A DNA stretch of 64,000 nt from assembly GCF_024749045.1 (NCBI RefSeq), contig NZ_CP087184.1, positions 3,162,001 to 3,226,000 of the forward strand, given 5' to 3'. Both the position numbers and the translations under genes were made by a program. Positions 52,881-62,711 of the stretch are shown in pieces. The DNA is from Pseudomonas sp. B21-028. Its GTDB lineage: Bacteria > Pseudomonadota > Gammaproteobacteria > Pseudomonadales > Pseudomonadaceae. The first letter of the stretch is position 1. The number at the start of each line of letters is the position of its first letter. Under the pieces are notes generated by a model. The model worked only from the letters and a program-made list of their open reading frames with translations, had not been told where the DNA came from and made no database searches.

Positions 52881-53417
52881 ATGCCCCGAATCCTGACCAG
52901 CCAGAACCCGGAAGAAGAACTGACGGAACACCAGGCCAAGTTGTTCGGCTCCCCCAAGGAGCGACTGGATTTCTATCGTCGGGAGATCCAGTACGAAACC
53001 AGTATTCTGGCCAATCGTACCGATGCGTACCTGGCCGCCCAGTCGTTCCTGGTGATCGCTTTCGCCTCCTGCATGGCCAACCTGAACCCGGAGTGGGGCA
53101 AGTTGTTCACTTTGATCGTGCCGCCGTTCCTGGCCTTGCTGGGTTTCCTGAGCTCCCTCAACGCCTGGCCGGGCATTCGTGCCGCCTACGAGATCATCGA
53201 TCACTGGCATTTCAAACAGAGTGAGTTGCTGCGCTCCGAACCGATGATGGGCCTGGTCTATGACGAGTCGCCGCTGTTCAGTGAGCGGGAATCGACCCAC
53301 AAGGGCTACCGCAAGTCGCTGCTGTTTTCGGTGCGTACGCCGTGGATTTTTGCTGCGTTCTGGGTGTTGCTGGGGGTGTATTCGGTTTATATCCAGGTGA
53401 CCGACCCCGGGGCCTGA
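52881..53417 (+). CDS. Hypothetical membrane protein
   Basis: 178-aa protein, family not recognised. A charged N-terminal region (ELTEHQAKLFGSPKERLDFYRREI) is followed by three predicted transmembrane segments (QSFLVIAFASCMANL, FTLIVPPFLALLGFLSSL and IFAAFWVLLGVYSVYI). The region between the second and third helices is polar and could face the cytoplasm. A GAGGGAAA site precedes the ATG. It is convergent with the cation antiporter gene, with only 11 bp between stops, and no shared regulation is implied. Confidence 0.8.
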   Translation: MPRILTSQNPEEELTEHQAKLFGSPKERLDFYRREIQYETSILANRTDAYLAAQSFLVIAFASCMANLNPEWGKLFTLIVPPFLALLGFLSSLNAWPGIRAAYEIIDHWHFKQSELLRSEPMMGLVYDESPLFSERESTHKGYRKSLLFSVRTPWIFAAFWVLLGVYSVYIQVTDPGA

Positions 53418-53428
53418 GGCCCACCGAT

Positions 53429-54766
53429 CTAGCCTGATCGCTTATGGCGCTCATACCACGCCAGGGTCGGCTGGGTGCTCAAGCCGTGGACCAGGATGCT
53501 CAGGGCCACCACCGAGAGGGTGAGGTTGATACACAGGTTCGCCACCTCGGGTGGCAGGTGATGGTTCAAGGCAAAGAACAGGTAGAACAGACTGCCGATA
53601 CCGCGTATGCCGAACCAGCCGATCAGCAATCGTTGCGAGCGGTCCAGCAAGCGCCCCCAGGGCATCGCCAGCACACACAAGGGGCGAATGACGGCGAACA
53701 GCAGGGCGCCGATGGTCAGGGCCCGCCAGTCCCAGTGATTGGCCAGCACTACCCCGAGCAGGGTCACCAGAAACACTTCCATGGCGCGCTCCACCAGGCT
53801 GCCGAACGCGAGCATGTCGCCCATCATCACCCCGGCGGCCACCTGGCCGTCTTCCAGCGCCTCGGTGTCCCCCAGCACCGCTTGCCGAGGGGCAACAGTT
53901 TCGTGCCCCACCACCGGTTGCACCAGGTGTTCAGCCGGCGGCGAGTCCTGGTCGGTAGAGGCCACCTCGGCCTGGCGCAACCCCAATCCGGCGGCGAACA
54001 CCGAGAGAAAACCATAGCCCTGGACCGATTCGGCGGCGACATAGGCCAGCGCGATCAACGCCAGGGCCAGGTAATCGTTGGGCGACAGGGTGCTGTCGGC
54101 ATTCCGGATGCGCATCGACAAGGTCAGGCGACCAATGCCGCGGCCCATTGTGTAGCCGATCAGCAAGCCTGCCGGTACAGCCCACAGCACATTGCGCAAG
54201 GCCCACTCGGTGAGGAAACCGCCATCGCCGTCACGCAGCATCAGCAGGCCAAGGATCACGAACGGAAACGCCGTGCCGTCGTTCAACCCGGCCTCGCCGG
54301 ACAGCCCGAAACGCACCCGATCGTCATCCCGGGCATCGTTGACCTGCACCAGCGCCGCCAGCACCGGGTCGGTCGGGGCCAACATCGCGCCGATCAGCAA
54401 CGACACACCCCAACCGAGACCGAACAGATAATGCAGCGCCAGGCACAGGCCGGCGATGCTCAGGATCATTACCGGCCCGGCCAACCCGTAGGCCACGCGC
54501 CAGGTGCGGTCCTTGAAGGGCAGGCGCAATTTGAGGCCGCTGACGAACAGTGAAAACACCACGGCGATTTCAGTGAGGTGTTCCATCCAGGTCGTGGAGT
54601 CGCTGACGTCCAGCTTCAACAACCCCAGCCCGACCGGACCAATGGCGACGCCCAGTGCCAGGCACATCGCCGAAGTGGTCACCGGCATCCAGCGCAGGTA
54701 GGAAGAGGTCAGGGCCAGAGTCAGCAATACGGCACCGAGCACCGCAACCCACGCTGTGAAAATCAT
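53429..54766 (-). CDS. Cation:proton antiporter (CPA1/NhaP-like)
   Basis: 445-aa inner-membrane exchanger with about 12 helices. The CPA1 signature LLIGAMLAPTDPVLAALVQ (about residues 120-138) and the downstream GEAGLNDGTAFPFVILG block contain the aspartates that bind the cation and proton. It probably exchanges Na+ or K+ for H+, serving pH and salt homeostasis. ATG 54766 is chosen because AAGGAG stands five bases before it; the open frame continues ten codons upstream. An acidic cytoplasmic loop (STDQDSPPAEHLVQPVV) interrupts the later helices. A palindromic repeat lies upstream. Confidence 0.9.
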   Translation of the reverse strand: MIFTAWVAVLGAVLLTLALTSSYLRWMPVTTSAMCLALGVAIGPVGLGLLKLDVSDSTTWMEHLTEIAVVFSLFVSGLKLRLPFKDRTWRVAYGLAGPVMILSIAGLCLALHYLFGLGWGVSLLIGAMLAPTDPVLAALVQVNDARDDDRVRFGLSGEAGLNDGTAFPFVILGLLMLRDGDGGFLTEWALRNVLWAVPAGLLIGYTMGRGIGRLTLSMRIRNADSTLSPNDYLALALIALAYVAAESVQGYGFLSVFAAGLGLRQAEVASTDQDSPPAEHLVQPVVGHETVAPRQAVLGDTEALEDGQVAAGVMMGDMLAFGSLVERAMEVFLVTLLGVVLANHWDWRALTIGALLFAVIRPLCVLAMPWGRLLDRSQRLLIGWFGIRGIGSLFYLFFALNHHLPPEVANLCINLTLSVVALSILVHGLSTQPTLAWYERHKRSG

Positions 54767-55144
54767 TGGTGCTCCTTGGATAACCGCAACGCTCAACTGT
54801 TGGCCTCGCCCTTGTGGCGAGGGGATTTATCCCCGCTGGGGCGCGAAGCGACCCTAAACCAGTCAACTCAATCTGCTGGTACACCGCAGTGGCAGGTTTT
54901 AGGACTGCTTCGCAGCCCAGCGGGGCGGTGCGACGTTTCGCTAAATTCCCTCGCCACAAGGGTTGGCACTTACCCCCGGTTCTTCCATTCGAGAGCTCGA
55001 ACGAAGCGAGGGTTCCCATCACAACCGCATCGCCCCGTTTATCCGGCTGCATTTCAATTCGAGGGAATTTTTCGCCGCGTCCAGGGCTCTGCTCTGGAAG
55101 AGACGTGCTGATTCAGCGTCCTGCCAAGCACCCATGAGGCCCTT
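54767..55144. other. 378-bp gene-free region between divergent genes
   Basis: It holds a palindromic repeat (54814-54957) and then about 185 bp with no recognisable promoter pair, in front of the oxidase-methyltransferase-ligase-LigD operon. No gene is seen. Confidence 0.6.
54814..54957. repeat. Partly degenerate GTGGCGAGGGG palindrome
   Basis: The left arm is complete, but the right arm reads GCGGGGCGGTGCGACGTTTCGCTAAATTCCCTCGCCAC in effect: the GGGATAAATCCCC core is interrupted by an insertion of about 18 bp. It is a decayed or rearranged copy of the family. Confidence 0.85.
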
Positions 55145-56539
55145 ATGACTGCGCTGACTTCCCTTCACCGGCCCGCCACCGGGCGGCCGTTTACAGATCC
55201 GTTCACCGCCGCCGGGAACGTTCGCCAATGCTACGAGCGGCTGCTCCAGGGCCCGGACGATGCCGACCGGCAAGCCGTGGCCCAGGCCTATCTCCAGTCA
55301 TGCCTGGAGAAGACCGAGGCGCTGCCCCAGGAAATGCCCGACGACCCCATGGCCTTGCAAGCCTGGGTCGAGCAACACAGTGCCGGCGTGGCCCGGCAAT
55401 ACGGTGATTACCTGGAACGACGCAAGCACGGAGGCGCACGGGAGTTTTTCACCAGCAAGGCCCACGCCTTGTACTTCCTCCAGGCCGTCGCACCGACCAA
55501 GCTGGTGGACGGTGCCTGGCTGTATGGCGTGCTCAAGCACTGGCACGATCACCGCTTCGAAGGATTGCTGTCTACCTACCTGGAGGAGTTGGGCGACGGC
55601 GTCCCGGCGCTGAACCATGTGGTGATCTACCGCAAGCTGCTTGCCGAACACAGCTTGGCGGATACCCCGGACATCGACGACGAGCGTTACCTGCAAGGCG
55701 CGGTGCAACTTGCCCTGGGGTACGCCGGCGATGAATACCTGCCGGAAGTCATCGGCTACAACCTGGGCTACGAGCAACTGCCCCTGCATCTGCTGATCAG
55801 TGCCTATGAGCTGAGCGAACTGGACATCGATCCGTATTACTTCACCCTCCACGTGACCATCGACAACGCCAGTACCGGCCACGCCCACAAAGCCGTGCAA
55901 TCGCTGTTGCAACTGATGCCGATGGAAGCCGACCGCGAAGCCTTCTGGCGTCGGGTGACCCTGGGTTATCGCCTCAATGACCTGGGCCAGGGCAGCCGGG
56001 CGATCATCGAGTCGTTCGACCTGTATCGCGAAGTATTGGACATGCTCGAACGCAAACGCCCGTTCGGCCAGCACATGCACTCCGACTACTGCAAGTTCGA
56101 GGGCAAGACTGTCAACCAGTGGCTGGCGGCGCCGGGTCAACTGGAAGGCTTCCTCGACGCGCTGCAAGGCAAAGGCTGGATCCGGCGTCATGAGGACCCG
56201 CAAAACAGTCGGTTCTGGACCCTGATCGAAGGGGCCGGCGCGGCGATGTTCGGGGTGTTCAGCCCCTACGAAAAGCAGCTATTGCACGATTGGATCGCCG
56301 GTGACTGGCTGGAAAAGAGCACTCGTTCGACGCCCCGGCGCAACCATGGCGCCGCCGGCGAGTTACCCGCGCCGGCGGAAGATCCCGACGTGCAAAGCCT
56401 GCAGCAGGCGCTGCGTGGCCAGACGCCCGATGAGCAGATGCAGACCTTGATGCCCTGGCTCTCGGCTCGCTGCCACAGCCATCCGGCCGGGTTGCTGGCG
56501 ACCCGTCGGTTCATCGAACTCAAATCCGTACTTCGCTAG
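55145..56539 (+). CDS. Iron-containing redox enzyme, haem-oxygenase-like fold
   Basis: 464-aa protein of the haem-oxygenase-like family often annotated as iron-containing redox enzyme, a fold that includes non-haem diiron oxygenases and oxidases. Candidate metal-binding helices carry His/Glu/Asp: LKHWHDHRFEGLLSTYLEE near residues 120-138, YEQLPLHLLISAYELSELD near 205-225, and HVTIDNASTGHA near 238. No haem-oxygenase proximal histidine was confirmed, and the substrate is unknown. The first gene of a tight four-gene operon; its stop codon overlaps the AGGAG ribosome-binding site of the methyltransferase gene. The pairing with methyltransferase and YbdK-type ligase suggests a small-molecule modification pathway. 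Confidence 0.72.
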   Translation: MTALTSLHRPATGRPFTDPFTAAGNVRQCYERLLQGPDDADRQAVAQAYLQSCLEKTEALPQEMPDDPMALQAWVEQHSAGVARQYGDYLERRKHGGAREFFTSKAHALYFLQAVAPTKLVDGAWLYGVLKHWHDHRFEGLLSTYLEELGDGVPALNHVVIYRKLLAEHSLADTPDIDDERYLQGAVQLALGYAGDEYLPEVIGYNLGYEQLPLHLLISAYELSELDIDPYYFTLHVTIDNASTGHAHKAVQSLLQLMPMEADREAFWRRVTLGYRLNDLGQGSRAIIESFDLYREVLDMLERKRPFGQHMHSDYCKFEGKTVNQWLAAPGQLEGFLDALQGKGWIRRHEDPQNSRFWTLIEGAGAAMFGVFSPYEKQLLHDWIAGDWLEKSTRSTPRRNHGAAGELPAPAEDPDVQSLQQALRGQTPDEQMQTLMPWLSARCHSHPAGLLATRRFIELKSVLR

Positions 56540-56548
56540 GAGCCCTGC

Positions 56549-57550
56549 ATGAATCAGGAAGAACGCCTGTCCGAACCCGACCTGGCGCTGTTGCAGCTGG
56601 GCCGTCGGTTACAAGCCGACGGTTATCGCTTCATCACGCCAACGCCGCTGACCCATGAACGGGTCAACCAGCGGCCCGGAAACGAGCGTTCCAGGACATT
56701 GCGCGACGTGTTCGGTTGGTCGCGGCCATTTGCGCCGGGGCTGATTTCCGCCGACGAGCAGCGTCAACTGCAAGAAGCCGAGGTGCTGGAAGAGCGCCAG
56801 GGTCTGCTTCACAGCCGGGTGCGCTGGTCGAGCCTGGACGGCTTGCTGTTTGCCCATTCGGCATTCCCTACCCAGTCCAGTGATGCGGTATTTTTCGGGC
56901 CGGACAGCTACCGCTTCGCGCAACTGATCCATACCCATCTGCAACAAAACTTCACGGCGGTGCATCGGGCCGTGGACATTGGCTGCGGCGCCGGTGTCGG
57001 GGCGATCGTGATTGCCCGGGCCCGTCGCGAGGCCCAGGTGCTGGCTCTGGACATCAACCCGCTGGCCCTGCGCCTGAGCGCGGTCAACGCCGCGTTGGCC
57101 GAGGTGGGCAATCTCGAGATCGCCCACAGCGACCTGCTGCAGAACGTGGACGGCCAATTCGACCTGATCGTCGCCAACCCGCCGTACATGGCCGATCCGG
57201 CGGAGCGTGCCTATCGTGACGGTGGTGGCGCCCTCGGCGCCGGGCTGTCGTTGCGGATTGTCGAGCAGGCGTTGCCCCGTCTTACGCCGGGCGGCTCGCT
57301 GGTGCTCTACACCGGTGTGGCGATGGTCGATGGTCGCGATCCGTTCCTGGAGGCGTTGGGAACGTGGCGCGATTCGCCGGATTTTGGCTGGACCTACAAG
57401 GAACTCGACCCGGACGTCTTTGGTGAAGAACTGCTGACGCCGGGTTATCGGGACGTGGAAAGGATCGCCGTGGTGGCGTTGGTGGTAACCCGCATCGGCG
57501 CGGGAATCGGAGGGATTGTCGATGAACAGGCGTCTGAAGTTCGGCATTGA
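56549..57550 (+). CDS. Class I SAM-dependent methyltransferase
   Basis: 333-aa methyltransferase. Motif I DIGCGAGVGAIVIA (about residue 144) binds AdoMet, and the NPPY motif at residues 210-213 is the amine-methylating signature of N6-adenine and HemK/RsmC-type enzymes. The first ~110 residues form an extra N-terminal domain (RRLQADGYRFITPTPLTHERVNQ). The target may be a nitrogen of a protein, RNA or small molecule. It begins 9 bp after the oxidase stop and overlaps the following ligase gene by 29 bp, so the two are co-transcribed. Confidence 0.85.
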   Translation: MNQEERLSEPDLALLQLGRRLQADGYRFITPTPLTHERVNQRPGNERSRTLRDVFGWSRPFAPGLISADEQRQLQEAEVLEERQGLLHSRVRWSSLDGLLFAHSAFPTQSSDAVFFGPDSYRFAQLIHTHLQQNFTAVHRAVDIGCGAGVGAIVIARARREAQVLALDINPLALRLSAVNAALAEVGNLEIAHSDLLQNVDGQFDLIVANPPYMADPAERAYRDGGGALGAGLSLRIVEQALPRLTPGGSLVLYTGVAMVDGRDPFLEALGTWRDSPDFGWTYKELDPDVFGEELLTPGYRDVERIAVVALVVTRIGAGIGGIVDEQASEVRH

Positions 57551-58685
57551 AGAAGAATATTTCATCACCGACTTGCAAACCCGCTGTATGCCCGGTCAAC
57601 CGTCCGAGGCCGCGGTGGCCGAATGCCGGATCGAGCTGGGCAAGCATTTCGCCCATGAAATGTTCCAGAGCCAGGTCGAGGTGGCGTCGCCCATCTTTCG
57701 CAGCCTGCCCGAAGCCGCCGACTACCTGACCGAGGTGCGCGCCGGGCTGACCCGACGTTTGGCGCCTCATGGCCTGGGGCTGCTCAGCGCCGGCTCTCAC
57801 CCCATGGCGACCCAGAGTTTGCAGCCCACCGATGAGTTGCATTTCCAGCAACTGTTCGACGACTACCAGCGGGTGGCCCGGCGCAGTGTGCTGTCGGGTC
57901 TGCATGTGCACGTTGAGGTCCCGGCCGACCGGGATCGGATACGGGTGATGAACGAGGTCTTGCCCTGGCTGCCGATGTTTCTCGCGCTGAGTGCTTCCTC
58001 ACCGTTCTGGAACGGCGCGTATAGCGGCTTCAGCAGCTATCGCCAGGTCGCCTGCGATGAGTGGCCGCGCATGGGCGTCCCGGAGTTTTTCGAAGACGAA
58101 ACGGCGTTTGCCGAATACGTCTACTTACTCATGCGCACCGGCTCGATTCGCCAGGCCAGCGATTGCTGGTGGGTCATTCGACCTTCCTCGCATTTCCCCA
58201 CCCTGGAAATGCGCATCTGCGATGCCTGTCCACGGATCGATGATGTCCTTTGCCTGGTCTCGCTGTTTCGCCTGATGGTGGCCCACGCCATTGCCCAACC
58301 CAAGCCCGGGGCGCGCTACAGCCAGACGTCCCAGTGGATCCTCAAGGAAAACCGCTGGCGGGCCAAGCGCCACGGGATCCTGGCGGAATTCATTATCGAG
58401 GGGCAGGAGCAGCCGATGCTCATCGGTGAATGGCTGACCCTGGCCGAACAGACCTTTGGTGAAACGGCCGCGGCCCTCGGGGTCAGCGACGTGTTCAAGC
58501 AGGCGCGGCGGATCGTGCAGGAAGGCACCAGTGCCGACCGGCAAGTGGTCCTCTACGAGCAAGGGTTGCTGCTGGGGGATACGCCTGTCCAGGCCCTGGG
58601 CCGGGTCGTCGATCAACTGGTATCGGAAACGGCCGGGCTGCCCGTGGCCGGTCCGACGCTACAGCAAGCGGCAGGTGGCCGATGA
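57522..58685 (+). CDS. ybdK: Carboxylate-amine ligase YbdK family (glutamate-cysteine ligase type 2)
   Basis: 387-aa ATP-dependent ligase of the GCS2/YbdK family. The opening FGIEEEYFITDL contains the conserved acid triad binding magnesium-ATP; LHVHVEVPADRD, RPSSHFPTLEMRICDACP and WILKENRWRAKRHG are also family blocks. E. coli YbdK has weak gamma-glutamylcysteine ligase activity; in other pathways relatives join glutamate to amines. The start at 57522 has GGAGGG at correct spacing; a TTG at 57516 is less likely. It overlaps the methyltransferase gene and has an ATGA overlap with ligD, so all four genes are probably one transcript. Confidence 0.9.
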   Translation: MNRRLKFGIEEEYFITDLQTRCMPGQPSEAAVAECRIELGKHFAHEMFQSQVEVASPIFRSLPEAADYLTEVRAGLTRRLAPHGLGLLSAGSHPMATQSLQPTDELHFQQLFDDYQRVARRSVLSGLHVHVEVPADRDRIRVMNEVLPWLPMFLALSASSPFWNGAYSGFSSYRQVACDEWPRMGVPEFFEDETAFAEYVYLLMRTGSIRQASDCWWVIRPSSHFPTLEMRICDACPRIDDVLCLVSLFRLMVAHAIAQPKPGARYSQTSQWILKENRWRAKRHGILAEFIIEGQEQPMLIGEWLTLAEQTFGETAAALGVSDVFKQARRIVQEGTSADRQVVLYEQGLLLGDTPVQALGRVVDQLVSETAGLPVAGPTLQQAAGGR

Positions 58686-61282
58686 CCAGCAAGAACCTCG
58701 ATGACTACAACCGCATGCGTGATTTCGCCGCCACCCCGGAGCCGGCGGCGAAGCGCTCGCGCACATCGAAGAAAACCGCCCACGCCTTGCAGTTCTGCAT
58801 TCAGAAACACGATGCCTCGCGGCTGCATTATGACTTTCGCCTGGAACTGGACGGCGCCCTGAAGAGCTGGGCGGTGCCCAAGGGACCGAGCCTGGACCCC
58901 AAATCCAAGCGCCTTGCGGTGCATGTCGAAGACCATCCGTTGGATTACGCGACGTTCGAGGGCAGCATTCCCGAAGGTCATTACGGCGCCGGCGATGTCA
59001 TCGTCTGGGATCGAGGCGTGTGGATTCCCCAGGACGATCCCCATGAGTCCTACGAAAAGGGCCGGCTCAAGTTCGAGCTGCAAGGCGAGAAGCTGGCCGG
59101 CTTGTGGAATCTGGTCCGTACCCACATGCCGGGCAAGCAGGAACAATGGTTTCTGATCAAGCACCAGGACGACGCCGCCCGGCCCGAAAGTGAGTACGAC
59201 GTGGTTCAGGCAGAGCCGGACAGCGTGCTCAGCGACCGCACCATTGTCCCCAAGCGCCGTGGCAAAGCCGCCGCCAAAGCGGTGAAACAGCCGGATAAAA
59301 CCGCCAAACCCAGGTCATCGAAAAAACCTTCAAAAAACACCCTCAGCGGCGCGGTGGCCGGGCCGATTCCCGAGACGCTCAAGCCGGAGCTGGCGACCCT
59401 GGTGGAAAGCGCCCCCGACGGCGAATGGCTTTACGAAATCAAATTCGATGGCTATCGGGTCATGGCCCGCATCGAAAACGGTGATGTACGCCTGATCACC
59501 CGCAACGGCCACGACTGGACCCACAAGTTGCCCAGCCAGGCCGAGGCCCTCGCCGGGCTCGGACTTGAGTCGGCCTGGCTGGACGGGGAAATGGTGGTGG
59601 CCAACGAACAGGGCGTGCCGGATTTCCAGGCCCTGCAAAACGCCTTCGACGCCGGCAGCAGCGGCAAGATCGCCTATTACCTGTTCGACCTGCCGTATCT
59701 CAATGGCATGGACCTGCGCAAAGTGCCGGTGGAGCAGCGCCGGGCTGCGCTGGCGGCGGTGCTGGAGGGCAACGAGGATCCGTTGTTGCGTTTCTCCGAT
59801 GCCTTCGCGGAGACCCCTGAGGCGTTGCTCAACAGCGCCTGCCAGATGAAGATGGAAGGGCTGATCGGCAAGCGCGCAGGCAGTGCCTATGTGTCCCGGC
59901 GCAGCAGCGACTGGATCAAGCTCAAATGCAAGAACCGCCAGGAATTCGTGGTGGTCGGTTTCAGCGAGCCCAAGGGTGCCCGCAGTGCTTTCGGCGCGTT
60001 GCTGCTGGGGCTGCATGACGCCGACAGCGGCGAACTGCGCTATGCCGGCAAGGTCGGCACCGGGTTCAACGAAACCACCCTCAAGAGCATCCACCAGCAG
60101 CTGCTGCCCCTGGAGACGAAAAAAGCGGCCGTGGTCAATCCACCCACCGGCTACGAAGCCAAGGGCGTGCACTGGCTCAAACCGACGCTACTGGCCGAAG
60201 TGGCGTATGCCGAGATGACCAAGGAAGGTTCGGTGCGCCATGCGGTGTTCCATGGTTTGCGCAGCGATAAACCGGCCAAGGAAATTACCCAGGAGCGCCC
60301 GAAAGCCGTGGACAAGCCAGCAGAAGTCGCAAAAAAAACGGCCAAGTCCACGACGAAAGCCAAGGGCAAAGCAACACAGGCCCCGGCGATGGACGGCAAG
60401 GTGCGGATCACTCACCCCGAGCGGGTCATCGACGCCACCAGCGGCACCACCAAACTGCAACTGGCCGAGTATTACGCCAGCGTCGCCGAGTTCATTCTGC
60501 CGGAGCTGGCCGAGCGTCCGGTGGCGCTGGTGCGGGCGCCGGACGGGATCGCCGGCGAGCTGTTCTTCCAGAAGAATTCCGAGCGCCTGGCGATTCCCGG
60601 GATTACCAGCCTGGACAAGGCCCTGACCGGGCAGCCGGTGATGATCATCAATAACGCCGAGGCGCTGATCGGCGCGGTGCAGATGAGCACGGTGGAGTTG
60701 CACACCTGGAACGCCACCGCCGTCGACCTGGACAAGCCGGATCGTTTCGTCCTCGACCTTGATCCGGACCCGGCGTTGCCGTGGAAAAGCATGGTGGAGG
60801 CGACCCAGCTGACGTTATCGGTGCTCGATGAACTGGGCCTCAAGGCATTTCTCAAGACCAGCGGCGGCAAGGGCATCCATGTGGTGGTGCCGCTGACGCG
60901 CAAACTCGGCTGGGACGAGGTCAAGGGATTCAGCCATGCCATTGTCAGCCACATGGCGAAGCTGCTGCCGGATCGCTTCTCCGCGGTGTCCGGGCCGAAG
61001 AACCGCGTCGGACGGATCTTCATCGACTACCTGCGCAACGGCCTCGGCGCCACCACTATCTGCGCCTACGCCGTCCGCACCCGGGAAGGGTTGCCGGTGT
61101 CGGTGCCGATCTTTCGGGAGGAGGTGGCGGAGCTCAAAGGGGCAAATCTGTGGAATGTGCACAACGTCCACGAGCGCCTGGCGGAGGTGGGTCACGAACC
61201 CTGGGCCGACCTGAAGAAAACCCGCCAGAGCATCACGGCCGACATGCGTCGGCGGATCGGGATGAAGAAAACCGATAAATGA
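58682..61282 (+). CDS. ligD: DNA ligase D (NHEJ polymerase-ligase-phosphoesterase)
   Basis: 866-aa multifunctional enzyme of bacterial non-homologous end joining. Domains in Pseudomonas order: N-terminal 3'-phosphoesterase (residues ~35-165; H43, H49 and D51 correspond to its active-site residues), ATP-dependent ligase (about 230-540; nucleotidyl lysine K254 in EIKFDGYR), a lysine-rich linker (KKTAKSTTKAKG), and a C-terminal primase-like polymerase with metal aspartates D692 and D694 in LDLDPD. It repairs double-strand breaks with the Ku protein, but no ku gene is in this window. Translationally coupled to ybdK (ATGA). Length is close to P. aeruginosa LigD (840 aa). Confidence 0.96.
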   Translation: MTSKNLDDYNRMRDFAATPEPAAKRSRTSKKTAHALQFCIQKHDASRLHYDFRLELDGALKSWAVPKGPSLDPKSKRLAVHVEDHPLDYATFEGSIPEGHYGAGDVIVWDRGVWIPQDDPHESYEKGRLKFELQGEKLAGLWNLVRTHMPGKQEQWFLIKHQDDAARPESEYDVVQAEPDSVLSDRTIVPKRRGKAAAKAVKQPDKTAKPRSSKKPSKNTLSGAVAGPIPETLKPELATLVESAPDGEWLYEIKFDGYRVMARIENGDVRLITRNGHDWTHKLPSQAEALAGLGLESAWLDGEMVVANEQGVPDFQALQNAFDAGSSGKIAYYLFDLPYLNGMDLRKVPVEQRRAALAAVLEGNEDPLLRFSDAFAETPEALLNSACQMKMEGLIGKRAGSAYVSRRSSDWIKLKCKNRQEFVVVGFSEPKGARSAFGALLLGLHDADSGELRYAGKVGTGFNETTLKSIHQQLLPLETKKAAVVNPPTGYEAKGVHWLKPTLLAEVAYAEMTKEGSVRHAVFHGLRSDKPAKEITQERPKAVDKPAEVAKKTAKSTTKAKGKATQAPAMDGKVRITHPERVIDATSGTTKLQLAEYYASVAEFILPELAERPVALVRAPDGIAGELFFQKNSERLAIPGITSLDKALTGQPVMIINNAEALIGAVQMSTVELHTWNATAVDLDKPDRFVLDLDPDPALPWKSMVEATQLTLSVLDELGLKAFLKTSGGKGIHVVVPLTRKLGWDEVKGFSHAIVSHMAKLLPDRFSAVSGPKNRVGRIFIDYLRNGLGATTICAYAVRTREGLPVSVPIFREEVAELKGANLWNVHNVHERLAEVGHEPWADLKKTRQSITADMRRRIGMKKTDK

Positions 61283-61307
61283 ACTGGGGATAGGGGATCG
61301 GGCTTCT

Positions 61308-61399
61308 GTGGCGAGGGGATTTATCCCCGCTGGGCTGCGCAGCGGCCCTAGAATCTTAGGGCCGCTTCGCGCCCCAGCGGGGATAAATCCCCTCGCCAC
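61308..61399. repeat. Long palindromic repeat (GTGGCGAGGGG family)
   Basis: Complete copy with both arms, 26 bp after the ligD stop. Its inner arms (GGGGCGCGAAGCGGCC-type) form a second short stem. It separates ligD from the convergent Yip1-family gene. Confidence 0.9.
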
Positions 61400-61431
61400 A
61401 GAAGCGTCCGGCGCAGGATCCCATCGGCTGA

Positions 61432-62043
61432 TCAACCCACCGGAAACCGCAGGTATTCCGGCTGCAACACGTTGAACCACAGCAGAATCATCTCCACCAG
61501 CATGGTCACCAATACCAGCAACCCAACCCCCCAGACACTCGCCGAATACAACAGCCCCTGTTCTTTCTTGACGCTCATGAACTTGGGCAGGCCGATAAAC
61601 AGCAGGTAGGTCGAATAAGCCGAAGCGACGAGCAATACGGCCACCGCCAGCCAGCGGCTGGGGTAAAGCCCGGAAAGCCCGGCCAGGAAGTACGGTGTGG
61701 CGGTATAGGCGGCAAAGCCGATGCACTGGTTGACGGTCGGGCGTGCCTCGAAGGTGCGGGACATCCAGCGAATGAATAAACCCATGAGCGCCACGCCGGC
61801 GACGATGGTCAGGTACAGCAGGACGCACAGTTGCAGTGCGCTGGCGGCAGTGAGCCGTACCGTTTCGTTCTCGGCCAGGCTCCAACCGGTCCAGGTGGTG
61901 CCGATGAACAGGCACACCGCCGGAATCAGGGCCAGCAACAGCAAGTGGCCGAGGTAATGGCGCGGGTGGGCCTGTTCTTCTTCGCGGATGTCCTGCCAGG
62001 CGAATTCGGGATGTGTGAACAGTTTGACGAAAGGTGCGGACAT
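61432..62043 (-). CDS. Yip1-domain integral membrane protein
   Basis: 203-aa inner-membrane protein of the Yip1/YIPF family (five transmembrane segments). It opens with the family pattern LFTHPEFAWQDIREEEQ, followed by hydrophobic helices (LLLLALIPAVCLFIGTTWTG, VLLYLTIVAGVALMGLFIRW, YTATPYFLAGLSGLYP and others). Bacterial members have no settled role; membrane organisation is possible. A short minus-strand leader precedes the start, which is divergent from the CinA-like gene. It is typical in length. Confidence 0.88.
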   Translation of the reverse strand: MSAPFVKLFTHPEFAWQDIREEEQAHPRHYLGHLLLLALIPAVCLFIGTTWTGWSLAENETVRLTAASALQLCVLLYLTIVAGVALMGLFIRWMSRTFEARPTVNQCIGFAAYTATPYFLAGLSGLYPSRWLAVAVLLVASAYSTYLLFIGLPKFMSVKKEQGLLYSASVWGVGLLVLVTMLVEMILLWFNVLQPEYLRFPVG

Positions 62044-62210
62044 GACGACCTCCTGATCAAGTCAGCCTCAGCGTGAGGCCCTTATGGGTTTGAGGCGCAG
62101 GATTGGAGGACGGTTTCATTTATTTGTCGCGGCGCGCCGGGAAGCGATTGGAGGGAATGAATCCAAGCGGCAGGGGTCAACCCATCAGCATCCCGGAAGG
62201 ACTTCGCACC

Positions 62211-62711
62211 ATGACTGTCGCCCGTACCCTGGTTGATTACCTGCGAGACCATGACTTGCGCCTGACCACGGCTGAATCCTGTACCGCTGGCCAGATCGTT
62301 ACGCTGCTGGCCGAAGTGCCGGGCAGCGGTTCACTGATCGAAAGCGGTTACGTAGTGTATTCCCCCGAGGCGAAACAACGGTTGCTGGGCGTGAACCCGC
62401 GAACCATTGACACCTTCAACCTCACCAGCCGCGAAGTGGCGGAGGAGATGGCCCTCGGCGCCTTGCACGATGCCAATGCCAACGTGGCAGTGGCGACCAC
62501 AGGGATCCTCGGGCCGGACGACATGGACGGCATTCCCGCCGGCACCGTGTGCTTTGCCTGGGCCTTCCAGCTCAATGGCAAGCGGGCGCTGTTCAGTCGC
62601 CAGGAGCGCTTTTTCGGGGCGCGCGGGCAGGTGCAGTTGTGGGCCGCCGAGCATGCGCTCCTGCAACTGCGGCACTTTCATCAGCGAGCCCTGGCGGGTG
62701 AGTACCGATAG
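62211..62711 (+). CDS. pncC: Nicotinamide-nucleotide amidase, CinA-C/PncC family
   Basis: 166-aa stand-alone CinA C-terminal domain. PncC deamidates nicotinamide mononucleotide to nicotinate mononucleotide, recycling NAD by-products from DNA ligation. The fingerprints are TTAESCTAGQIVTLLAEVPG (residues ~21-40), a GYVVYSPEAKQRLLGV segment, and TTGILGPDD. It starts at 62211 with CGGAAGG upstream; the longer frame to 62103 lacks a ribosome-binding site. Neighbouring ligD makes a link to NMN plausible only in a loose sense, since LigD uses ATP. Confidence 0.88.
   Translation: MTVARTLVDYLRDHDLRLTTAESCTAGQIVTLLAEVPGSGSLIESGYVVYSPEAKQRLLGVNPRTIDTFNLTSREVAEEMALGALHDANANVAVATTGILGPDDMDGIPAGTVCFAWAFQLNGKRALFSRQERFFGARGQVQLWAAEHALLQLRHFHQRALAGEYR

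What the first reader, a model, noticed from the sequence alone, without database searches (positions are those of the whole stretch)
55145..61282. Coupled operon: haem-oxygenase-like iron enzyme, methyltransferase, YbdK ligase and DNA ligase D
The four genes are joined by overlaps or a stop-overlapping ribosome-binding site (9-bp gap, 29-bp overlap, ATGA). Haem-oxygenase-like diiron enzymes and YbdK ligases occur in small-molecule pathways, so a dedicated biosynthetic or detoxification unit may be co-expressed with non-homologous end joining, perhaps in stationary phase or under oxidative/desiccation stress. The product of the first three genes is unknown.
Basis: inference. Interest (0 to 1): 0.72.

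Follow-up and report, generated by a model that had tools for sequence, protein, structure and literature searches.

The report
Stress-protection genes joined to DNA-repair ligase
A Pseudomonas seems to make a relative of a recently described drought-and-oxidation protection protein, two companion enzymes and a DNA-break repair ligase from one gene unit, which hints that the protein helps to make an unknown protective molecule.

Summary
The four-gene unit is real: 9-nt gap, 29-nt overlap, ATGA. Its core is the first two genes: in 119 Pseudomonas genomes the haem-oxygenase-like enzyme (HDO) and the methyltransferase (MT) occur in the same 70, side by side. YbdK is optional: 33 of 119, all HDO-positive, 26 within 5 kb of HDO. 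HDO occurs in 70 of 88 Ku-positive and 0 of 31 Ku-negative genomes; 37 of 70 carry LigD or Ku within 12 kb, in several gene orders. The HDO resembles, over residues 63-459 of 464 (42% identity), an A. baumannii protein with E143, H153 and H232, the numbering of DtpC, an HDO published in June 2026 that protects dried cells. There it sits with katE; one relative carries HDO, MT, YbdK, LigD and KatE in one island. My reading: a "protect and repair" stress operon in which HDO-MT(-YbdK) most likely makes a protective small molecule. Against this, the two A. baumannii-complex-like genomes sampled lack the MT.

The parts
55065..55091 (+). promoter-like element GAATTTTT-N14-CTCTG, ending 53 nt before the HDO start codon; it resembles an ECF/AlgU-type promoter (recalled consensus, not tested)
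   Evidence: Only match to GAATTTTT-N13-15-CTCTG in the window (0.01 expected from shuffles). The close form GGAATTTT-N14-16-CTCTG has one exact match in the 6.49 Mb genome. With at most one mismatch the element lies upstream of HDO in 75 of 77 loci with adjacent LigD and 9 of 44 other loci.
55102..55120 (+). small leader hairpin or operator-like inverted repeat GACG...CGTC (weak)
   Evidence: Predicted in a 26-sequence alignment: three pairs invariant, one pair A-U in 17, G-U in 7 and G-C in 2, a fifth pair broken or gapped in 3
55145..56539 (+). HDO: haem-oxygenase-like iron enzyme of the DtpC type; aligned ligands E148, H158, H236, further candidates E210, D240, H246; C-terminal part very weakly like a winged helix (E 0.087)
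56549..57550 (+). class I SAM methyltransferase with NPPY motif and an N-terminal region of about 110 aa before the methyltransferase domain
57522..58685 (+). YbdK-type carboxylate-amine ligase (GCS2 family)
   Evidence: PRK13515 and TIGR02050 above curated cut-offs; similar to E. coli YbdK 1r8g
58682..61282 (+). LigD, NHEJ ligase with 3'-phosphoesterase, ligase and polymerase domains
   Evidence: the genome's second LigD match (covering query residues 193-863 only) and its only Ku match lie 96-99 kb upstream of HDO
54809..54962 (.). REP-like palindromic repeats upstream of the operon (the name REP is recalled)
   Evidence: Repeats D1, I2, I3, I4
61302..61405 (.). REP-like inverted repeat (49-nt arms) just after the LigD stop codon; possible transcription end
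   Evidence: Repeat I1; no T-run terminator reported there

Best explanation
The window holds a stress operon that couples damage prevention to damage repair. Gene 1 is a Pseudomonas member of the DtpC family, an O2-activating dimetal enzyme (inferred from family and aligned residues) that limits endogenous oxidative damage in dried or resting cells (shown by others for A. baumannii DtpC, inferred here). Gene 2 is its NPPY methyltransferase partner (partnership shown by co-occurrence and adjacency, substrate inferred). Gene 3, in some lineages, adds an amino-acid ligation step. Together the first genes most likely build or modify a small protective molecule, such as an N-methylated, possibly gamma-glutamylated redox buffer or iron binder (inferred). 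Gene 4, LigD, takes no part in that chemistry but is made from the same message, so that strand-break repair is present when the cell recovers (co-transcription inferred from spacing).
For: HDO and MT in the same 70 of 119 genomes, adjacent in 70 of 70; YbdK only in HDO-positive genomes, 33 of 33; HDO in 70 of 88 Ku-positive against 0 of 31 Ku-negative genomes, and LigD or Ku within 12 kb in 37 of 70; NHEJ linkage changes at least 8 times on a quick HDO tree; junction geometry conserved; a conserved upstream element. In 19 of the 24 genomes with HDO-adjacent LigD this is the only LigD found at E 1e-100. Residues whose mutation abolished DtpC protection are conserved. katE linkage in Acinetobacter-type loci and in L134. 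The DtpC paper leaves three mechanisms open, one of them small-molecule biosynthesis; two companion enzymes of small-molecule type favour that one. In Pseudomonas sp. J380 a 1380-nt gene annotated 'iron-containing redox enzyme family protein' rises 2.19 log2 under iron limitation with katE, dps and sodA (PMC8069873, passages); its length fits this family, its sequence was not seen.
Against: The two A. baumannii-complex-like genomes in the sample (G827, G831) have HDO-katE but no MT at E 1e-20, and DtpC protects in A. baumannii, so the MT seems dispensable there. In that family 2 of 11 MT genomes have no HDO, and of the 9 with both the two lie 15 kb, 22 kb and over 1 Mb apart in 3. YbdK is absent from the 11 HDO-positive genomes of that family at E 1e-20. 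L045, L133, L135, L137 and L139 have no MT within 6 kb of HDO. LigD or Ku was not seen within 12 kb in 33 of 70 genomes; for 20 of the 70, LigD was on another contig. The co-occurrence counts are not corrected for the genome tree. No enzyme activity, structure or transcript was seen.
Confidence: 0.5

Rival explanations
1. The HDO protects by itself, by slowly consuming O2 or peroxide or by holding iron. MT and YbdK are accessory and do not form a pathway with it.
For: DtpC protects in A. baumannii; the two A. baumannii-complex-like genomes sampled lack the MT, and YbdK is absent from the 11 HDO-positive genomes of that family. The DtpC authors keep iron sequestration and ROS scavenging open.
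Against: HDO and MT adjacent in 70 of 70 Pseudomonas genomes, and both present in 9 of 11 HDO-positive genomes of the Acinetobacter-type family, within 2.5 kb in 6 of these 9; characterised HDOs mostly act on fatty or amino acids (review PMC13108848, section 4 read).
Confidence: 0.25
2. Only shared stress control: genes of one stress regulon are clustered, and enzymes of unrelated pathways are co-transcribed with LigD.
For: Neighbours change between lineages (LigD, Ku, KatE, a short-chain dehydrogenase, a KGG protein), and YbdK linkage changes at least 11 times on the tree.
Against: It explains the LigD link well but not the constant HDO-MT pairing in Pseudomonas across different surroundings.
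Confidence: 0.15
3. The MT acts on a macromolecule (protein glutamine or asparagine, RNA or DNA), perhaps on the HDO itself or on a repair or translation protein, and no small molecule is made.
For: Best profile match in the PDB is HemK/PrmC (E 6.9e-17); sub-threshold matches to Eco57I and N6-adenine methylase models in a relative; a PADLOC match to mad2 (1.3e-20 over 139 residues).
Against: Single-sequence search ranks 7rc3-type (recalled as AerE) and gentamicin N-methyltransferase chains first; it scores far below the PrmC, PrmB, PrmA and RsmC curated cut-offs.
Confidence: 0.1

Closest known systems
DtpC of Acinetobacter baumannii (PMC13232832; abstract, sections 3, 6, 10 and passages read)
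   Same: Similar over residues 63-459 of 464 (42%, 168 of 402 columns, to A. baumannii protein P0145); E143, H153 and H232 present at those numbers in A. baumannii proteins P0137 and P0145 and aligned with E148, H158, H236 here; both in gene units with stress genes
   Different: Operon partner katE there, MT, YbdK and LigD here; the paper's main text does not contain the word methyltransferase; no phenotype known here. The DtpC entry itself was not retrieved: identity rests on residue numbers and the HDO-katE order.
HDO superfamily (SznF, UndA, CADD, FlcD, FlcE, AetD, PolF, MboA)
   Same: PF14518 domain and the core E-x9-H ... H-x3-D pattern
   Different: No solved HDO matched well by sequence (best 9pfw, E 0.87); sixth ligand candidate H246 lies 6 residues after D240, where SznF and CADD have 3 (recalled); extra C-terminal region
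Bacterial NHEJ (Ku and LigD)
   Same: LigD with its three domains; Ku elsewhere in the genome
   Different: In the 24 genomes with HDO-adjacent LigD, Ku was within 12 kb in none; LigD is the last gene of an HDO-MT(-YbdK) unit
YbdK/GCS2 carboxylate-amine ligases
   Same: Above curated cut-offs
   Different: Its partners suggest a dedicated substrate; none known
NPPY N-methyltransferases (PrmC/HemK, gentamicin N-methyltransferase, 7rc2-type)
   Same: SAM-binding core, NPPY motif, extra N-terminal region
   Different: Far below the curated equivalog cut-offs listed

Membership tests
HDO (haem-oxygenase-like dimetal oxidases) | PF14518 domain | tested here: met
   94.4 bits, cut-off 28.9; 35 of 35 aligned relatives match
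HDO (haem-oxygenase-like dimetal oxidases) | three His and three carboxylate metal ligands | tested here: inconclusive
   E148, H158, E210, H236, D240 and H246 are invariant or nearly so in 35 sequences, but assignment to metal sites needs a structure
HDO (haem-oxygenase-like dimetal oxidases) | seven-helix haem-oxygenase fold | not tested
HDO (haem-oxygenase-like dimetal oxidases) | dimetal cofactor that activates O2 | not testable with these tools
DtpC family | sequence similarity over most of the protein and the three residues needed for protection | tested here: met
DtpC family | co-transcribed katE | tested here: not met
   Partner here is MT-YbdK-LigD. katE follows HDO in 4 of 6 fetched HDO loci of the Acinetobacter-type family (L157, L170, L171, L172; not L173, L174) and lies near it in L134
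DtpC family | protects dried cells | not testable with these tools
   -
YbdK carboxylate-amine ligase | curated family score | tested here: met
   PRK13515 418.8 against 371; TIGR02050 315.5 against 176.4
LigD (NHEJ) | phosphoesterase, ligase and polymerase domains | tested here: met
LigD (NHEJ) | Ku in the genome | tested here: met
   Ku at G000:C1:3120549-3121082
PrmC release-factor methyltransferase | curated score 199.1 | tested here: not met
   71.9 bits

The most novel reading that the evidence does not exclude
HDO, MT and YbdK form a three-enzyme route to an unknown metabolite (an oxidised, N-methylated, gamma-glutamylated amino acid acting as redox buffer or iron trap) that shields DNA in dry or starving cells. 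DtpC of Acinetobacter performs its first step, and many Pseudomonas bind this route to the NHEJ ligase in one message.
Probability: 0.3. Interest if true: 0.85.

Novelty: new variant of a known kind. Interest (0 to 1): 0.62.

Why it matters
DtpC was reported in June 2026 as an HDO tied to desiccation and oxidative stress, by its authors' account the first, with three possible mechanisms and none chosen (PMC13232832). The gene context found here, a methyltransferase partner that is constant in Pseudomonas and an optional amino-acid ligase, favours the small-molecule mechanism and names the enzymes and gene removals to test, in harmless laboratory pseudomonads. It also shows a recurrent physical link between such a protectant and the NHEJ machinery.

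Tried and rejected
Considered and rejected: (1) a fixed four-gene unit: YbdK and LigD are variable. (2) A phage-defence unit: PADLOC gave four methyltransferase models for the MT (best mad2, 1.3e-20 over 139 residues) and nothing for the other three proteins. (3) The MT as PrmC, PrmA, PrmB or RsmC: far below curated cut-offs. (4) A known RNA in 54700-61700: no Rfam match at gathering scores. (5) A conserved RNA hairpin in the leader: a short stem with one compensated pair, too little to claim. (6) RpoS control: no test available; the upstream element looks more like an ECF-type site, but that consensus is recalled. (7) A broken LigD in G019 and G114, whose matches fall into two pieces: both pieces lie in one open frame, so this is an alignment split.

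Led nowhere: literature searches for the cluster (no papers; papers on other subjects, listings only); single-sequence and profile searches for solved HDO relatives; structure prediction, for which the HDO job was still unfinished and the MT job was not accepted, so no fold search was run.
Full report
Observation. The four ORFs and their junctions are as described, and the families of YbdK and LigD are confirmed with curated models, those of HDO and MT at domain level. The LigD has its 3'-phosphoesterase, ligase and polymerase domains. A simple scan found no sigma-70-like promoter in 54700-61600, where 1.1 would be expected by chance. Among the window and 80 named loci the junctions hardly vary: HDO to MT 8-13 nt in 74 of 75 measurable loci, MT to YbdK -29 in 19 of 19, YbdK to LigD -4 in 18 of 19, and MT to LigD -7 to +15 in 53 of 54 where YbdK is absent.

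Which genes belong together. One scan of named genomes gave 182 relatives of the HDO, of which the best 80 were kept, all titled Pseudomonas. YbdK lies between MT and LigD in 18 of the 80, corrugata/brassicacearum-type loci (L002-L018, L081). Of the other 62, 54 read HDO-MT-LigD (in L041 and L070 some parts matched only in part); L024 lacks LigD, L045 lacks the MT, L077-L080 have HDO-MT without LigD, and L020 and L030 end at a contig edge. In an even sample of 119 Pseudomonas genomes: HDO 70, MT 70 (the same genomes, at most 221 nt from HDO), YbdK 33 (all within the 70), LigD 86 (69 of the 70 HDO genomes), Ku 88 (all 70, a partial match in G075). YbdK lies within 5 kb of HDO in 26 of 33: 18 downstream on the same strand, 8 in another orientation. 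HDO is within 12 kb of LigD in 33 of 70, of Ku in 13, of either in 37; for 20 of the 70, LigD was on another contig. By simple genome-size arithmetic about one of 70 would be expected by chance (my estimate, not a call). Fisher tests on presence give 3e-16 (Ku) and 2e-15 (LigD) but ignore common descent.

Independent arrangements. Regions from 32 HDO loci and 8 others (YbdK, LigD or Ku loci) were fetched and annotated. The arrangements are: HDO-MT-(YbdK)-LigD; HDO-MT-gap-LigD (L123, L124); HDO-MT-YbdK with Ku and an oppositely directed LigD (L110, L111; L112 without YbdK); HDO-MT with Ku alone (L128); and in another genus (L134) LigD, YbdK, HDO, MT and KatE with a short-chain dehydrogenase within about 12 kb. 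On a quick tree of 121 HDO rows (LG+G4, 41 of 117 inner branches weak) NHEJ linkage changes at least 8 times, MT linkage 5, YbdK 11 and KatE 2; 5 rows were undetermined for NHEJ, 1 for MT and 3 for YbdK. These counts cannot tell gain from loss. Beyond Pseudomonas the family is rare: 17 of 398 genomes of the phylum sample and 13 of 293 of the order sample, both including Pseudomonas.

Link to DtpC. A literature search on HDO names found PMC13232832: DtpC of A. baumannii, an HDO co-transcribed with katE, protects dried cells, limits H2O2 and desiccation-induced mutation, and needs E143, H153 and H232 (abstract and sections 3, 6, 10 read). A. baumannii proteins P0137 and P0145 carry these residues at these numbers. 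The window HDO aligns with P0145 over residues 63-459 (42%), with E148, H158 and H236 in the matching columns. I did not retrieve the DtpC record itself. In six fetched HDO loci of that family KatE follows HDO in four: L157 and L172, with the MT convergent behind katE, and L170 and L171 (G831, G827), where the dehydrogenase stands directly behind katE and there is no MT; L173 and L174 have no katE in the stretch. In 81 genomes of the family HDO occurs in 11, MT in 11, both in 9; the two HDO genomes without MT are G827 and G831, the two MT genomes without HDO are G788 and G807; where both occur they lie within 2.5 kb in 6 of 9. YbdK occurs in 1 of 81 and in none of the 11. This is the strongest result against an obligate pathway.

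Regulation. The element GAATTTTT-N14-CTCTG lies at 55065-55091. With at most one mismatch it stands upstream of HDO in 75 of 77 loci with adjacent LigD and 9 of 44 others; simple shuffles of the same upstream pieces gave this 2 times in 2420. These loci are related, so part of the conservation is common descent. The close form GGAATTTT-N14-16-CTCTG has a single exact match in the whole genome. The element is also present in L080 and L024, which have HDO-MT without LigD, so it belongs to HDO-MT rather than to LigD; it is not found in the putida-type loci L110-L112 or the Acinetobacter-type loci. It resembles the AlgU/ECF consensus as I recall it; no test of the sigma factor was possible. In Pseudomonas sp. 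J380 a 1380-nt gene annotated as iron-containing redox enzyme rises with katE, dps and sodA under iron limitation (PMC8069873, passages); its sequence was not seen.

Role of LigD. In 19 of 24 genomes with HDO-adjacent LigD it is the only LigD found at E 1e-100; in none of the 24 was Ku within 12 kb. In the window's own genome a second LigD match (query residues 193-863 only) lies next to Ku, 96-99 kb upstream of HDO.

Mechanism. Shown: pairing, linkage, conserved residues, conserved geometry and upstream element. Inferred: dimetal oxygen chemistry, methylation of a small substrate, optional ligation, shared transcript, stress timing. The DtpC paper leaves iron sequestration, ROS scavenging and small-molecule biosynthesis open. 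A SAM methyltransferase that is constant in Pseudomonas and an optional GCS2-type ligase point to the third, while the lack of the MT in the A. baumannii-complex-like genomes keeps the first two alive.

Novelty. No paper found links this HDO family with a methyltransferase, YbdK or LigD (searches; open-licence PMC only; most hits seen as listings). DtpC, HDOs, YbdK and LigD are each known; the combination is new to me.

Check. 

Noticed in passing
L134 1257-13634: One island with a short-chain dehydrogenase, LigD, YbdK, HDO, MT and KatE in another genus of the family: it bridges the Pseudomonas (NHEJ) and Acinetobacter (katE) contexts.
   Followed up: yes
L139 9173-10597 (G475, second HDO copy): Divergent HDO paralogue in which several metal-ligand positions are replaced (LKNLGDG...NQ for LEELGDG...NH; ASA for GHA): probably not a dimetal enzyme.
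   Followed up: no
window 54809-54962 and 61302-61405: REP-like palindromes of one family bracket the operon; the downstream one starts 20 nt after the last base of the LigD stop.
   Followed up: partly
G000:C1:3118236-3121082 (outside the window): A second LigD match (665-aa open frame, query residues 193-863) next to the genome's only Ku match.
   Followed up: no
L157 1324-1827 (and similar ORFs at L170 12560-13039, L172 5585-6049): A short CinA-family protein (PF02464 shown for L157 only) lies divergent to HDO in Acinetobacter-type loci; an ORF similar to it (26% identity) follows the window operon at 62103-62711. Possibly coincidence.
   Followed up: no
window 55102-55120: Short inverted repeat in the HDO leader with one compensated pair; could be an operator or an RNA hairpin.
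   Followed up: partly
L045 9380-9446: The MT is missing and LigD follows HDO after 65 nt, although HDO and LigD look intact: a natural HDO-LigD pair without MT.
   Followed up: no
window 52881-53417: 178-aa membrane protein, weakly like the 8xMP family (24.8 bits, cut-off 30), conserved upstream of the operon in the corrugata-type loci together with an antiporter of the Na_H_Exchanger family.
   Followed up: no
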